A stretch of 64,000 bases of DNA, taken from Parvibaculaceae bacterium Mf 1.05b.01 (lineage in GTDB: Bacteria > Pseudomonadota > Alphaproteobacteria > Parvibaculales > Parvibaculaceae). The notes under the pieces are model-generated. The model searched no databases and was not told the origin of the DNA. It was given only the letters and a program-made list of their open reading frames with translations. Positions 44,995 through 51,778 of this stretch are shown in pieces. Numbering within the stretch: the stretch's first letter is position 1; each line of letters opens with the position of its first letter. The stretch spans positions 1,488,001 to 1,552,000 of the forward strand of contig BAOK01000001.1 in assembly GCA_000509225.1 (NCBI GenBank), given 5' to 3'. The position numbers and the translations under genes were made by a program.

Positions 44995-45495
44995 ATGTCT
45001 AAGGACAATACAAAAGCACGGACTGAACAAGCCCCGGCCGACGCAGCGCGACGCTTTCTCGAGTTTTATTATCCAATCCACTACAAAGCCGGATTGCGCG
45101 TTGAGGATTCCATGCGCGCTGGCGAGATAGGACGTCATCAGGTCGCCATTTTGTGGTTGATCCACTCGGAAGGCACCGATGGGCGGCTAATGAACCGGAA
45201 AGACATCGAAAGACATCTAGGAGCCTGGTTCGAGATCTCAGGAGCTGCGATCACCAAAGCCATCCGGAGCATGGCCAGCGAACCTCTATCGCTTCTGACT
45301 GTGGAAGAAGCCGCTCATTCCGGCCGCGAGAAAGTCGTTACCCTTACGCGGGCCGGAGAAAAGTTCGTGGATGGCATGATCAAACGTGGTGACGCCTTTA
45401 TTCAACGCATCATCGAGACGATGACTGACGAAGAGATCAATCAGGGTCTCCACTTTTTTCAGCGAATCTCTGATGTGATTGATGATCTGCGGTAG
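44995..45495 (+). CDS. MarR-family transcriptional regulator
   Basis: 166 residues with a winged-helix core: IGRHQVAILWLIHSE, the recognition region FEISGAAITKAIRSMAS, and the wing VTLTRAGEKFVDGMIKRG. N- and C-terminal helices would form the dimer. It is transcribed away from the P450-SnoaL pair and probably represses it until a ligand is present. The N-terminus is charged and not conserved. Confidence 0.82.
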   Translation: MSKDNTKARTEQAPADAARRFLEFYYPIHYKAGLRVEDSMRAGEIGRHQVAILWLIHSEGTDGRLMNRKDIERHLGAWFEISGAAITKAIRSMASEPLSLLTVEEAAHSGREKVVTLTRAGEKFVDGMIKRGDAFIQRIIETMTDEEINQGLHFFQRISDVIDDLR

Positions 45496-45507
45496 GTGGT
45501 GATGCAT

Positions 45508-45660
45508 TTATTGCGATTGGTCGACCATATTGTCGACGGCCGCTTTTAGCTCGTCGTCAGAGCAATCGAAGCACGGTCCTTCAACTGGCCTTCCGTTGAA
45601 GCCGTCGTTAGTGCTTGTGTTCAGGATATCAATGCCTTTACCGACCAACGGTTGGCCCGG
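45508..45660 (-). pseudogene. Cytochrome c5-type gene remnant (C-terminal 50 codons)
   Basis: Reading the minus strand from 45660 gives an open frame ending TAA at 45508, with GKGIDILNTSTNDGFNG and then CFDCSDDELKAAVDNMVDQS. This closely resembles the end of cytochrome c5 family proteins (the GF.G.P..G..DCSD.E.KAAV.YMV pattern). The haem-binding CxxCH half is absent: the frame abuts the LysR stop codon directly, in the same frame. It is therefore a truncated remnant with no start, not a functional haem protein. Confidence 0.75.
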
Positions 45661-46548
45661 CTAGTTTTTCGCCTCTGCGACTAACCAGGAGATAAAATCC
45701 CTGACCTTTATTGAATCCTTCCTTTCCGCACTGCAAAGACTGCAATAGGCCAAACCTTCGAAATGAATTTCAGGGCGGTAGGGCTGCAACCAGCGGCGCG
45801 AAACGACATACCCCGCGAGTACGTCGCTCAGCAGGATTAATCCTTGTCCCGCAAGACCTGCTTGAAGCACTTCGTGTTCATGCAGGAATTCCCGAAACGC
45901 CGCCTTTTTTGGCGGCTGCATATCTCCAGCTGCGAACCAGTCTACCCAGCTGGCCCGCTTTAAGTTCTTTTCCACCCATGCAGTGCTAATGAATTGCGCT
46001 TCCGACAAGTCTTGCAACCGTTCAATGTATTCGGCGGATCCATACGCCATGAATCTTTCCTTCAAGGCGAGCGGGCTGTCCAGCTCAGAGACACCATCGC
46101 TGCCGTATCGAATGGCAACATCTACAGTCTTATCGCGGCGAAAATCGACCCGTTCCGTCGATGAGATCGTCTTTACATTTACATCCGGATACTGCGCCTC
46201 GAATGACCCGATCCGAGGCGCAAGCCAAAGCGCCGCGAAGGCCGGTGTCGCGGAAATTGTAAGCGTTTTTTCTGATAGGCTAAGCGCATCGAGCGTGGTT
46301 TCAATGCGCGAGAAGGCTGACGCGGTCGCCTCAGACAGTTCCCGTCCTGCCGCGGTCAATGAAACCTGCCGTGTTCCCCTCACGAACAGCGCCACACCAA
46401 TCTGCGCTTCCAATCCTCGAATGTGATGAGAGACAGCGGTCGCTGACACGTTCAATACTTCTGCTGCATCCTTAAAACTGCCAAGCCGCGCTGCGGCATC
46501 AAACGCTCGAAGTGCAGTCAGGGAAGGCATCGGCACGGCGGACTCCAA
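45661..46548 (-). CDS. LysR-family regulator (GcvA-like)
   Basis: 295 residues: N-terminal helix-turn-helix (LRAFDAAARLGSFKDAAEVLNVSATAVSHHIRGLE) and a substrate-binding domain. The 'AVSHHI' recognition helix and length are GcvA-like. It is divergent from the azoreductase gene and probably regulates it. Its stop codon abuts a cytochrome c5 remnant; the last residues AEAKN look normal but the junction suggests a rearrangement. Confidence 0.88.
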   Translation of the reverse strand: MESAVPMPSLTALRAFDAAARLGSFKDAAEVLNVSATAVSHHIRGLEAQIGVALFVRGTRQVSLTAAGRELSEATASAFSRIETTLDALSLSEKTLTISATPAFAALWLAPRIGSFEAQYPDVNVKTISSTERVDFRRDKTVDVAIRYGSDGVSELDSPLALKERFMAYGSAEYIERLQDLSEAQFISTAWVEKNLKRASWVDWFAAGDMQPPKKAAFREFLHEHEVLQAGLAGQGLILLSDVLAGYVVSRRWLQPYRPEIHFEGLAYCSLCSAERKDSIKVRDFISWLVAEAKN

Positions 46549-46561
46549 GATGAGAAAAACT

Positions 46562-46573
46562 TATCTATAGATA
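46562..46573. promoter_or_regulatory. 12-bp palindrome upstream of LysR
   Basis: TATCTATAGATA is a perfect palindrome 14 bp upstream of the LysR start. It could be an autoregulatory LysR site or part of the promoter. Confidence 0.4.
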
Positions 46574-46597
46574 CCAAAACTGTATTTGTCATTGGCC

Positions 46598-46642
46598 AAT
46601 AAAAGCACAAAATTTCCATCTCGTCGTCACTATGCTTTTATT
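46598..46642. promoter_or_regulatory. 10-bp inverted repeat upstream of azoreductase
   Basis: AATAAAAGCA (46598-46607) and TGCTTTTATT (46633-46642) are perfect complements over 25 bases, in the divergent region of the LysR and azoreductase genes. Spacing suits two protein-binding half-sites rather than a transcript hairpin. Confidence 0.45.
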
Positions 46643-46701
46643 TTACTCATCTGTTTTCAAAACGGCCCCCATCGCGACCCCACAAACAGGAGCGTACAGT
46701 C

Positions 46702-47352
46702 ATGCCTTCTCTATTGCGAATTGATGCAAGTCCGCGTCAAACAAAATCTCTCACCCGAATGTTGAGCAATCAATTTCTTTCCGCGTGGAAAAGTACTGGC
46801 GTTGGCCTGGAGGTTATGCCGCGAGATGTGGGCTTGCACCCACCCGCTGCGATCTCCGAAAGCTGGATCGATGCCGCCTTCACGTCAGAAGATGCACGTT
46901 CAGCCGCACAGATTGCCCAGCTCGAATCCTCTGAAGTTTTCATAGATGAAGTACAGCGTGCTGACCTAATTCTAATCGCTACGCCCATGTACAATTATGG
47001 CATGCCAGCTGCTCTAAAAGCCTGGATCGATCAGGTCGTGCGAATCAACAAGACCTTCTCCTTCGATCTTGCGCGAGGCGACCGGCCGCTCGAACCGACA
47101 CTTGATGGCAAGACTCTCGTGCTTCTCACCGCATCTGGCGAATTTGGATTTGGCCCCGGCGAACTGAACGGTGACGCAGGGCACCTCGTTCCCCATATCC
47201 GCACTGTTTCAAAGTATCTGGGGGCGGGCGATCTACGCCATATCGGCATTGAGTATCAGGAATTTGGTGATGATCGCTTCGAAAAATCGAAGACTGAGGC
47301 TATCGCAAATGTTGAAGCCCTGTCCGCTCAGCTTGCTGAGCGTCACAGGTAG
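46702..47352 (+). CDS. azoR: FMN-dependent NADH-azoreductase family protein
   Basis: 216 residues of flavodoxin-like fold: LLRIDASPRQTKSLTR (FMN phosphate loop), LILIATPMYNYGMPAALKAWIDQVV (diagnostic MYN region) and LLTASGEFGFGP. AzoR-type enzymes reduce azo dyes and quinones, probably as quinone detoxification. It is divergent from a LysR regulator, the common arrangement. Its stop is 20 bp from the outermost guaA-tail copy and convergent to it. Confidence 0.88.
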   Translation: MPSLLRIDASPRQTKSLTRMLSNQFLSAWKSTGVGLEVMPRDVGLHPPAAISESWIDAAFTSEDARSAAQIAQLESSEVFIDEVQRADLILIATPMYNYGMPAALKAWIDQVVRINKTFSFDLARGDRPLEPTLDGKTLVLLTASGEFGFGPGELNGDAGHLVPHIRTVSKYLGAGDLRHIGIEYQEFGDDRFEKSKTEAIANVEALSAQLAERHR

Positions 47353-47371
47353 AACCTCCTAGATCAGGCAA

Positions 47372-47488
47372 TCATTCCCACTCCATGGTGCCGGGGGTTT
47401 GGACGTCACGTCATAGACAATATGGTTGATGCCACGGATCTCATTGATTGCGCGACCTGAGAAACGAGTGTTCGAAGGGACAATATTC
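47372..47488 (-). pseudogene. Decayed duplicate of guaA 3' end (outer copy)
   Basis: The minus strand encodes [18 protein letters not shown] and, before it, TRFSGR, matching the end of GuaA. Relative to the working gene it has a 12-bp (four-codon) deletion and a one-base loss in a run of C near the end that shifts the frame past the stop. It begins at the TCATTCCCACTC end shared by all three copies. It is not functional. Confidence 0.8.
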
Positions 47489-47580
47489 GGCCGCGGACCA
47501 ACGCGACCGATAGTGAGCGGGGCATCTACAAAGAAGTTGCATGATCCTCTGACAACAAGCAAAGCCATTCACCTTGCCAG

Positions 47581-48405
47581 CTAGTAGGCTGCCTCAATGG
47601 CGGCGACGGTGTTTTCCGTGTTGTCGACATCGCTGGCGATCATCCGGAAATTGGTGAGCGCTGCATTGTAGCCATTATAGAATGGTGTGATTGCCCCAGC
47701 CGTCGCGTCCGTCACAACCATGATTTCGAACCCTTGTTCAGCGAGTTCACGCATATGAGATTCTGTACACAGGTTGGCGGACATGCCCGCTAGGACGATC
47801 TTGGAGATGCCGGCTTTGCGGAGTTGCAGGACCAAATCGTTTGTTTCGGGTCCATAGATTTTGTGAGGGCTTGTCACGACAGTTTTACCATTGTTGATGT
47901 ATGGCTTGTACTGCTCCAGCCAGTCAGAACCAGAGCCCTCAAATCCCTCTACTGTTAATTGACCCGGACGATCAAACATCCTGATTGTATGCATCACGAC
48001 CTCAAGCGTGCCTTCGTGCTGCCATTTGTGATCAGTTGGAAAATAGTAATGCGGTGAAATAAACATCGGCATGCCTTCGGCGTCTGCTGTTTTCATCAGC
48101 GCCTCAAGGTTCTCGACCACGCCGTTAGCGCGAACACTCTCACCTACCACAGCCCAGGCCACACCATCTTCGGACAGAAAATCATTCTGCGGATCGGTGA
48201 TGACCAGTGCCGTCTTGCCTGGTTCGATGTCGAAGCCTGGTGCTGGTAGTCCATCCTTGATCGGAGGCAGGTGAGCGGTCGCCGCCCGAGATGTTTCGTC
48301 TGCATTGGCCGGACCGCTGAGGTAAGCGGCGAGCGCAAGAACACCTGCCGCGAGAACCAGGGAGTGATTTGCGCCTTGGGCAATTCTGTGCATGAATTGT
48401 TTCAT
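47581..48405 (-). CDS. Exported isochorismatase-family cysteine hydrolase
   Basis: 274 residues. A signal peptide (about 1-35, cleavage near GPANA/DE) is unusual for this mostly cytoplasmic family. The mature part has TALVITDPQNDF with the first catalytic Asp, a Lys region around SPHKIYGPETNDL, and the nucleophile Cys in LAGMSANLCTESHMRELAEQG. The active site (Asp-Lys-Cys) appears complete. It would hydrolyse an amide or enol ether in the periplasm; substrate unknown. It is divergent from the LysR gene within the guaA insertion. Confidence 0.85.
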   Translation of the reverse strand: MKQFMHRIAQGANHSLVLAAGVLALAAYLSGPANADETSRAATAHLPPIKDGLPAPGFDIEPGKTALVITDPQNDFLSEDGVAWAVVGESVRANGVVENLEALMKTADAEGMPMFISPHYYFPTDHKWQHEGTLEVVMHTIRMFDRPGQLTVEGFEGSGSDWLEQYKPYINNGKTVVTSPHKIYGPETNDLVLQLRKAGISKIVLAGMSANLCTESHMRELAEQGFEIMVVTDATAGAITPFYNGYNAALTNFRMIASDVDNTENTVAAIEAAY

Positions 48406-49518: not shown

Positions 49519-49600
49519 TCATTCCCACTCGATGGTCCCGGGTGGTTTCGACGTCACATCATAAACAACGCGGTTGATGCCCCGCACCTCATTGATGATC
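49519..49600 (-). pseudogene. Duplicate of guaA 3' end with intact reading frame (middle copy)
   Basis: The minus strand encodes [15 protein letters not shown] followed by [11 protein letters not shown] and TGA, identical in protein to the working GuaA tail over 26 residues. At DNA level I count 11 differences in 82 bp, all silent. Homology ends abruptly at about 49600. It has no start and is not a gene; it looks like the guaA tail of a different allele left by an insertion. Confidence 0.85.
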
Positions 49601-50230
49601 TTCGATAAGCGAAAGCCACAAGGCTCTAGGAACTCCCATCATAACCAGTGCGCTTAGTGGTTACACTAAACAGGAATCCAATTATAATTGTCGTGCGCCT
49701 TACGTCCGCACTTCAAACACGTCGCGAATAAACCGGGCTCTGAATCTTTTCCATCGCGGGACCAAGGTACCTTCGAGACTTCAGCATATCGCGTTTTCGC
49801 ACATCTGCCTTTGCAAAGGACCTGGACCAGCCGAGAACGAGGAGTACTCTCAGCATATTTCGGTATTCGCAATATACGAGTCCTTTCGACGATGGTGGTG
49901 CGGGCGGAGGGGGCTAGCCCACCTCCTTGTGACTCTCTTGGTCCAAACTAATCTGTCTAGGAGGCTTCAACTGCCCACATACGCTCACGACCCTACTAAG
50001 GGACCCGCAGAATCACTCGATCACGCACGCACTTAAAAATTACGAGCATTAACACCTCCAATCCGGTTGCAAAAACCAAGTCTGCAAGCCCCGGAAAGGT
50101 CGTGGCGCACGCAACAGTTGCCAGTGCTCCCATCAAGACCAGCCCCTTCCGGGCCAAGCTCAATGAACACAAATACAAAATAGAGGTTTTAGGGAAAATT
50201 TCCAGACATTCTTCAGCTACACTAGATGTC
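49601..50230. mobile_element. Proposed guaA-3' insertion II (about 630 bp)
   Basis: The segment lies between the middle guaA-tail copy and the working guaA stop. It is gene-poor: one possible small gene (49666-49872) and, on the minus strand at about 49996-50133, a frame for a short hydrophobic peptide (MGALATVACATTFPG) that I do not call. No integrase or transposase is present. It may be the remnant of a larger element. Confidence 0.5.
49666..49872 (-). CDS. Possible small zinc-ribbon protein
   Basis: A 68-codon frame from a TTG. The protein has two cysteine pairs, CKGRC (Cys20, Cys24) and CLKC (Cys52, Cys55), followed by GRKAHDNYNW, which looks like a small zinc-binding fold. There is no clear ribosome-binding site and no ATG. 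It is the only coding candidate in insertion II. I cannot name the family. Confidence 0.4.
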   Translation of the reverse strand: MRIPKYAESTPRSRLVQVLCKGRCAKTRYAEVSKVPWSRDGKDSEPGLFATCLKCGRKAHDNYNWIPV

Positions 50231-51778
50231 TCATTCCCACTCAATTGTCCCCGGCGGCTTAGACGTGACATCATAGACAACACGGTTGATGCCGCGGACC
50301 TCATTGATGATCCGTGTTGAAACGCGACCTAAGAACGAATGTTCAAAGGGATAGTAATCAGCCGTCATGCCGTCCGTTGACGTAACAGCTCGGAGTGCAC
50401 AGACATAGTCATAGGTCCGGCTATCTCCCATGACGCCCACTGAACGCACAGGCAACAGCACCGCAAAAGCCTGCCAGATCTCGTCATAAAATCCTGCCTT
50501 GCGGATCTCATCCAGATAGACCGCATCAGCCTTTTGCAAAATATCCACTTTCTCGCGTGTGATTTCGCCAGGAATACGGATCGCCAAGCCTGGTCCCGGG
50601 AACGGGTGGCGCCCGACAAAGGTTTCAGGCAGGCCCAGTTCACGCCCCAGGATGCGCACTTCATCTTTGAAAAGCTCACGAAGTGGTTCCACAAGCTTCA
50701 TATTCATGCGTTCGGGCAGGCCGCCCACATTGTGATGGCTTTTGATTGTGACGCTCGGCCCCCCGGTGAAGGAGACGCTTTCAATCACATCCGGATAGAG
50801 CGTGCCCTGAGCCAGGAAGTCTGCCCCACCGATCTTCTTTGCTTCTTCGTCAAACACATCGATGAAGGTCGAGCCAATAATCTTCCGCTTCTTTTCAGGG
50901 TCAGACACACTCTCAAGCTTACCGAGGAAGAGATCGCGTGCATCTGCATGAACAAGCGGGATGTTGTAATGATCGCGGAAGAGAGTGACGACCTCGTCAG
51001 CCTCTCCTGCCCGCATCACACCTGTGTCGACAAAGACGCATTGCAGCTGATCGCCGATGGCTTCATGAAGCAGCACCGCGACAACAGAGGAATCGACGCC
51101 GCCAGAAAGACCACAGATTACACGGCCTGTACCGACCTGCTCACGCACCTTGGCGATTTCGGTTTCTTTGAACGCCGCCATGGTCCAGTCGCCCTGGCAC
51201 CCGGCAATTTTGTGGGTGAAGTTTTTCAGAAGGTCAGCGCCACATGGTGTGTGTACAACTTCTGGGTGGAACTGAACCGCGTAGAACTTTCGCGCTTCGT
51301 CGGCAATGGCGGCGTAAGGTGCGCCTTCTGAAACCGCGACGGTTTTAAAGCCTTCGGGAAGTTCAACCACCCGGTCGCCATGGCTCATCCAGACCTGTTC
51401 TTTGTCGCCCGCCTTGAGGACTCCCTCAAACAGCGCGCAGTCTTCGATGACTTCAATATCGGCACGCCCAAATTCCTGATGGTCATGAGCGTCAACGCGC
51501 CCCCCCAGCTGGGCACACATTGTCTGTTCGCCATAGCAGATGCCCAGGACCGGCACCCCCGCCGTGAACACCGCCTCGGGAGCCCGTGGTGTATCGGTCC
51601 CCGTTACGCTCGCCGGACCACCAGACAAGATAATCGCCTTCGGATCAAAGGTCTTGAGCGCTTCTGCTGCGGAGTTGAAGGGAACGATCTCACTATAGAC
51701 GCCACTTTCACGCACGCGGCGGGCAATGAGCTGGGTTACCTGGCTGCCAAAATCAATAATCAGAATACGGTCGGTCAT
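50231..51778 (-). CDS. guaA: GMP synthase (glutamine-hydrolysing)
   Basis: 515 residues, complete. The glutaminase domain has Cys81 in [10 protein letters not shown] and the His/Glu of [10 protein letters not shown]; the ATP pyrophosphatase domain has the PP-loop [11 protein letters not shown]; the C-terminal dimerisation domain ends GTIEWE. It converts XMP to GMP, after GuaB. The 3' end is duplicated twice downstream (49519, 47372), marking it as an insertion site, but the gene itself is intact. Confidence 0.97.

What the first reader, a model, noticed from the sequence alone, without database searches (positions are those of the whole stretch)
45508..45660. Headless cytochrome c5 gene fused in frame to the stop of a LysR gene
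Fifty codons of a cytochrome c5 C-terminus, without CxxCH, directly follow the LysR stop in the same frame. The breakpoint is exact at the stop codon. It marks a deletion or insertion that removed the front of the cytochrome gene, and suggests the LysR-azoreductase pair was inserted here. Stop read-through would make a fusion, though that is unlikely.
Basis: partly seen in the sequence, partly recalled or inferred. Interest (0 to 1): 0.5.

Follow-up and report, generated by a model that had tools for sequence, protein, structure and literature searches.

The report
Broken cytochrome gene beside swapped genes
A 50-codon leftover of a small electron-carrier gene lies next to a regulator-enzyme gene pair that looks swapped in from a relative; it is a well-preserved but ordinary case of bacterial gene decay and gene replacement.

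Summary
The fragment is real. On the minus strand, 45511-45660 plus stop 45508-45510 encodes the last 50 residues of a cytochrome c5, with no signal peptide and no CxxCH. Genus relative G001 keeps an intact 105-aa gene (CVACH) between a LysR gene and the same MarR-like gene; G002 and G003 hold it there with other lesions, so 1 of 4 copies is intact. An azoR-LysR pair was thus already its neighbour; it did not arrive by landing on the cytochrome gene. Trees conflict. The divergent block ends within 47579-47630 and 45489-45606. Best reading: the pair was replaced in place by a relative's allele, and a net deletion of 273-276 bp beheaded the cytochrome gene and probably made the present LysR stop. 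One event or two is undecided. The breakpoint cannot be fixed at the stop codon. Ordinary, neatly documented.

The parts
45508..45660 (-). remnant (50 codons and stop) of a cytochrome c5 gene; no signal peptide, no CxxCH, Met of the NGMP motif replaced by Arg; only start is a TTG at codon 5
   Evidence: intact homologue in G001
45645..45687 (-). zone in which the LysR-cytochrome junction must lie; includes the TAG 45661-45663; 273-276 bp net are missing here against G001-G003
45661..46548 (-). LysR-type regulator, divergent allele (63-66% aa to G001-G003); ORF from TTG, an ATG lies six codons in
   Evidence: PF00126 5e-21 and PF03466 4e-19
46702..47352 (+). azoreductase-like flavodoxin-fold oxidoreductase (azoR), divergent allele (67% aa to G001-G003), divergently oriented from LysR
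   Evidence: PF02525 1.1e-35; NCBIfam azoreductase models match only below their cut-offs
44995..45495 (+). MarR-like winged-helix gene, convergent native neighbour (94% aa to G003)
   Evidence: PF13463 0.0008, below its cut-off
45561..47597 (.). best-fitting divergent segment against G003 (34% differences inside, 14% outside); ends uncertain within 45489-45606 and 47579-47630

Best explanation
The fragment is a dead remnant of a small periplasmic cytochrome c5 gene that lay between a LysR gene and a MarR-like gene in the ancestor of four genomes of this genus (placement shown by synteny). A net deletion of 273-276 bp removed the end of LysR with its stop, the intergenic region, the signal peptide and the CxxCH haem site, and joined the LysR frame to the middle of the cytochrome gene (shown by alignment); the present TAG is then a by-product of the join (inferred). 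The azoR-LysR pair beside it was exchanged in place for a divergent allele from an unsampled relative by recombination in the flanks (supported by identity, fourfold-site divergence and conflicting trees; donor not found). Whether one recombination with an illegitimate end did both, or the truncation came with the donor or arose on its own, is open. The remnant most likely does nothing.
For: Intact gene in G001 at the same place; G002 and G003 copies there with unshared lesions. Fragment is cytochrome c5-like. No other copy found in the own genome. Pair 63-67% aa to G001-G003 against 83-88% among these, fourfold-site differences 61-73% against 29-41%; flanking genes G000-G003 91-97% aa and 24-53% at fourfold sites. 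azoR+LysR tree rejects G000+G003 (AU p 0.003); flank DNA tree joins G000+G003 (100/100) and rejects G001+G002+G003 (p 0.005). One divergent segment. Remnant changes spread over codon positions as in neutral decay: positions 1+2 11/80 against 1/396 in MarR and the P450 start (Fisher 1.7e-8); third positions 5/19.
Against: The flank protein tree does not reject G001+G002+G003 (p 0.07) and guaA is unresolved. The clades tested were chosen after seeing identities. No donor found. Remnant changes at positions 1+2 are as frequent as in azoR+LysR (11/80 against 131/870, p 0.87), and its first 50 bases are less like the relatives (32-36 of 50) than its last 95 (72-76 of 95), so part of it may belong to the foreign block. 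Junction not placed exactly.
Confidence: 0.8

Rival explanations
1. Only a local deletion happened; the azoR-LysR pair is native and simply evolved fast in this lineage.
For: Same place and orientation as in G001-G003; the genus copies are still its closest matches found (66-67% against at most 53% for LysR and 60% for azoR elsewhere).
Against: Fourfold-site divergence is raised too (61-73%), not only protein divergence; tree conflict; the change of divergence is sharp at both ends.
Confidence: 0.13
2. The truncation already existed in the donor and came in with the exchanged block, by homologous recombination with the left end inside the remaining cytochrome sequence.
For: The best left end of the divergent block lies in or just beyond the remnant (45489-45606); the first 50 bases of the remnant are the more divergent part.
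Against: Few sites; third-position changes of the remnant are fewer than in the foreign block (5/19 against 157/278, Fisher 0.016).
Confidence: 0.3
3. One reading: a LysR-azoreductase pair was newly inserted here and cut the cytochrome gene.
For: The pair is foreign-like; 8 of 8 other MarR loci read, out of 26 further genomes with this MarR gene, lack pair and cytochrome.
Against: Three genus relatives have a homologous pair here beside a full-length or nearly full-length cytochrome gene.
Confidence: 0.03
4. The fragment is expressed: a 46-aa peptide from the TTG, or a LysR fusion by read-through.
For: The frame is open; a TTG-started 46-codon ORF exists.
Against: No signal peptide, no haem site, Met of the NGMP motif lost, changes spread over codon positions.
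Confidence: 0.02

Closest known systems
Cytochrome c5 family (class I c-type; PDB 1cc5, 8smr chain L)
   Same: C-terminal half with the CxxC-S/T-DDEL(K/R)AAV stretch
   Different: No haem-binding CxxCH, no signal peptide, Met of NGMP replaced by Arg: not a working member
Truncation pseudogene
   Same: Front removed by deletion; other lesions in two sister genomes
   Different: Nothing unusual except that the remaining frame happens to be open and in phase with LysR
Xenologous gene displacement in situ
   Same: A divergent allele sits at the same place between native flanks
   Different: Donor unknown; nearby junction with a truncated neighbour
Homology-facilitated illegitimate recombination (abstract start of PMC3240628 seen in the listing)
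   Same: One homologous and one illegitimate end could give exchange and deletion at once
   Different: Not demonstrated here; two homologous ends are equally possible

Membership tests
Cytochrome c5 (functional member) | Sequence similarity to known cytochrome c5 | tested here: met
   1cc5_A and 8smr_L, E 9.7e-7, residues 9-45 of 50; score control
Cytochrome c5 (functional member) | CxxCH haem-attachment motif | tested here: not met
   absent from the remnant; the only CxxCH on the minus strand of 45000-47500 is a CRCCH at 46126, inside the LysR gene and out of its frame
Cytochrome c5 (functional member) | Axial Met (recalled: the Met of the N-x-M-P stretch in class I cytochromes) | tested here: not met
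   NGMP in G001-G003, NGRP in the window; the role of the Met is recalled, not from a call
Cytochrome c5 (functional member) | Export signal | tested here: not met
   lost with the front; present by eye in G001 (MMKTVLSGLLVLGLATTSSVANA)
Pseudogene | Intact orthologue at the same place in a relative | tested here: met
   G001
Pseudogene | Relaxed constraint | tested here: met
   positions 1+2 changed 11/80 against 1/396 in native flank genes; 7/40, 4/40, 5/19 by codon position; small counts
Pseudogene | No expression | not testable with these tools
   needs RNA or protein data
Xenologous displacement in situ | Same position as the resident gene in relatives | tested here: met
Xenologous displacement in situ | Phylogeny in conflict with flanking genes | tested here: met
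   the flank protein tree alone does not reject (p 0.07) and guaA is unresolved
Xenologous displacement in situ | Identified donor lineage | tested here: not met
   nothing outside the genus above 53% (LysR) or 60% (azoR) in 385 and 372 class-level genomes; plasmid collection all below 60%

The most novel reading that the evidence does not exclude
The cytochrome c5 was a working partner of the resident azoR-LysR pair (an electron carrier under the same regulator). Its loss in 3 of the 4 genus copies at this place, each by a different lesion, and the exchange of the pair here reflect one shift in function, in which swapping the regulator-enzyme allele made the cytochrome dispensable.
Probability: 0.07. 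Interest if true: 0.4.

Novelty: new member of a known kind. Interest (0 to 1): 0.2.

Why it matters
It shows how a small sequence oddity resolves by comparing congeners: a gene remnant, different lesions of the same gene in sister genomes, and an exchanged neighbouring gene pair, all in one 2-kb slot between guaA and a MarR-like gene. For annotation, 45508-45660 should be called a pseudogene, and the LysR C-terminus here is not representative.

Tried and rejected
Pfam and NCBIfam on the fragment alone gave nothing; the solved-structure search and the intact homologue gave the identification. Search for a second copy in the genome: only the fragment itself at E<=0.001; the five PF13442 matches in the genome lie outside the window. 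Plasmid collection searched for the source of the pair: best matches of azoR (246 records) and LysR (4528 records) all below 60% identity. Cytochrome c5 near the azoR-LysR pairs of four genomes of other families: best E 0.053, so none by my threshold, in the 12-13 kb read around each. The genome-contig scan with the MarR-like protein gave three records, whose contig lengths equal those of G001, G005 and G004, and no strain of the window's own species. In one search the G003 cytochrome row was translated across its frameshift; its values (52-62%) are an artefact and are not used. Rows covering under 70% of the query were dropped. Two small ORFs between guaA copies (49666-49872, 49996-50304) have no Pfam hit. 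Paper search 'cytochrome c5' with 'pseudogene' (first 8 of 34 listed, listing only): none of those eight was evidently on this case; I make no wider claim about print.

Full report
What is there. The window is positions 1488001-1552000 of contig C2 of a 3.82-Mb, two-contig genome. On the minus strand a LysR gene (45661-46548) ends in TAG, and the next 50 codons in the same frame are open up to a stop at 45508-45510. The peptide matches the C-terminal half of cytochrome c5 (1cc5_A and 8smr_L, E 9.7e-7). Its score against the intact homologue is 175, while 5000 shuffles reach at most 53, and the other 914 stop-free stretches of at least 40 aa in the window score at most 53. The remnant has no CxxCH and no signal peptide, and its only usual start is a TTG at its fifth codon.

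Relatives. A protein search of 61 genomes found the fragment's close relatives in three others of the genus: G001 65%, G002 70%, G003 64% identity; eight further genomes gave weaker hits (31-44%), and G004's lies on a different contig from its MarR-like gene. In G001-G003 the gene stands between a LysR gene and the convergent MarR-like gene, in the order guaA, azoR, LysR, cytochrome, MarR, P450; G003 has two further genes (isochorismatase-like and a second LysR) behind guaA. G001's gene is intact: 105 aa, signal-like start, CVACH, PF13442 at 1.1e-16. G002 has a frameshift in the signal peptide and an in-frame TAA; G003 has a frameshift in the middle. None of these lesions is in the remnant as far as it is kept, so the gene looks damaged separately in three of four genomes, with the reservation that G003's single indel could be a sequencing error. 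At eight other MarR loci that I read (L055-L062; 8 of the 26 further genomes with this gene) neither this LysR, azoR nor the cytochrome was found at E<=0.001.

The junction. Against G001, G002 and G003 the window lacks 275, 273 and 275 bp between LysR's last conserved codons and the middle of the cytochrome gene (alignment): LysR's tail and stop, the intergenic region, the signal peptide and the haem site. Split-alignment scoring accepts junctions spread from 45687 to 45645. The TAG lies in this zone, so 'exact at the stop codon' is not established; LysR's tail (AEAKN) is shorter than in the relatives and differs from them. The likely reading is that the stop is a by-product of the join.

The neighbours. 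Eight flanking genes are 91-97% identical (aa) to G003: guaA 97, second LysR 91, isochorismatase-like 92, MarR 94, P450 93, the 135-aa gene 97, the TPR gene 94, the membrane gene 94. The azoR and first LysR genes are only 63-67% identical to all three relatives, which share 83-88% among themselves; fourfold-site differences are 61-73% against 29-41%, and 24-53% for the flanking genes between G000 and G003. Trees: azoR+LysR puts G000 outside G001-G003 (96/98) and rejects G000+G003 (AU p 0.003). The DNA tree of five flanking genes joins G000 with G003 (100/100) and rejects G001+G002+G003 (AU p 0.005). The protein tree of the same genes points the same way but does not reject (p 0.07), and guaA is unresolved in both. 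I chose the tested groups after seeing the identities. A two-rate scan between G000 and G003 gives one divergent segment, 47597-45561, with 34% against 14% differences; its ends lie in 47579-47630 and 45489-45606.

One event or two. The remnant's own signal is mixed. Third-position changes are fewer than in azoR+LysR (5/19 against 157/278, Fisher 0.016) and not clearly more than in MarR and the P450 start (9/82, p 0.13), while positions 1 and 2 are changed far more than in those native genes (11/80 against 1/396, Fisher 1.7e-8) and as much as in azoR+LysR (131/870, p 0.87). Neutral decay of native DNA fits this best, on small counts. But its first 50 bases are less like the relatives (32-36 of 50) than its last 95 (72-76 of 95), and the best segment end lies in or just beyond it. 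So the truncation may have been made by the recombination itself (homology-facilitated illegitimate recombination is a known route; only the listing and abstract start of PMC3240628 were seen), may have come with the donor, or may be separate. I do not choose firmly.

Source of the pair. The divergently oriented azoR-LysR pair also stands in other alphaproteobacterial families: LysR at E<=1e-60 in 7 of 385 and azoR at E<=1e-45 in 16 of 372 class-level genomes, own genome and two genus relatives included in both. In the four genomes outside the genus with both (G161, G347, G066, G262) the genes are neighbours, without a cytochrome c5 near at E<=0.001. None is closer to the window's pair than the genus copies, so the donor was probably an unsampled member of or near the genus (inference).

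Function. By family knowledge the intact gene would encode a small periplasmic electron carrier, and the pair a flavin-dependent oxidoreductase with its divergently transcribed regulator (families). The remnant has lost export, haem attachment and the Met of its NGMP motif, and most likely has no function.

Verdict. Observation largely right, interpretation half right, case ordinary: a truncation pseudogene next to a gene pair exchanged in place.

Noticed in passing
window 50231-50312, 49519-49600, 47371-47452; L020:5512-5535: The 3' end of guaA (intact gene 50231-51778) is present three times (87% and about 62-76% like the true end), flanking a 0.6-kb stretch and the isochorismatase-like and second LysR genes; G003 has a 24-nt copy at the matching place. 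All copies keep GAGTGGGA, the 8-bp consensus reported for islands inserted at guaA 3' ends (passages of PMC7775301), so this looks like old insertion at guaA; no integrase was looked for beyond two small ORFs without Pfam hits.
   Followed up: partly
between MarR-like gene and guaA in L056 and L055: The same slot holds other genes in other relatives: by eye from the ORFs, an ArsR-like and an SRPBCC-like gene in G004 and a MaoC-like gene in G005; not checked with a family search.
   Followed up: no
G001-G003, azoR and LysR (L018-L020): Among G001-G003 the pair differs less at fourfold sites (29-41%) than MarR does (58-63%), while its proteins differ more; the pair may have been exchanged among these lineages too.
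   Followed up: no
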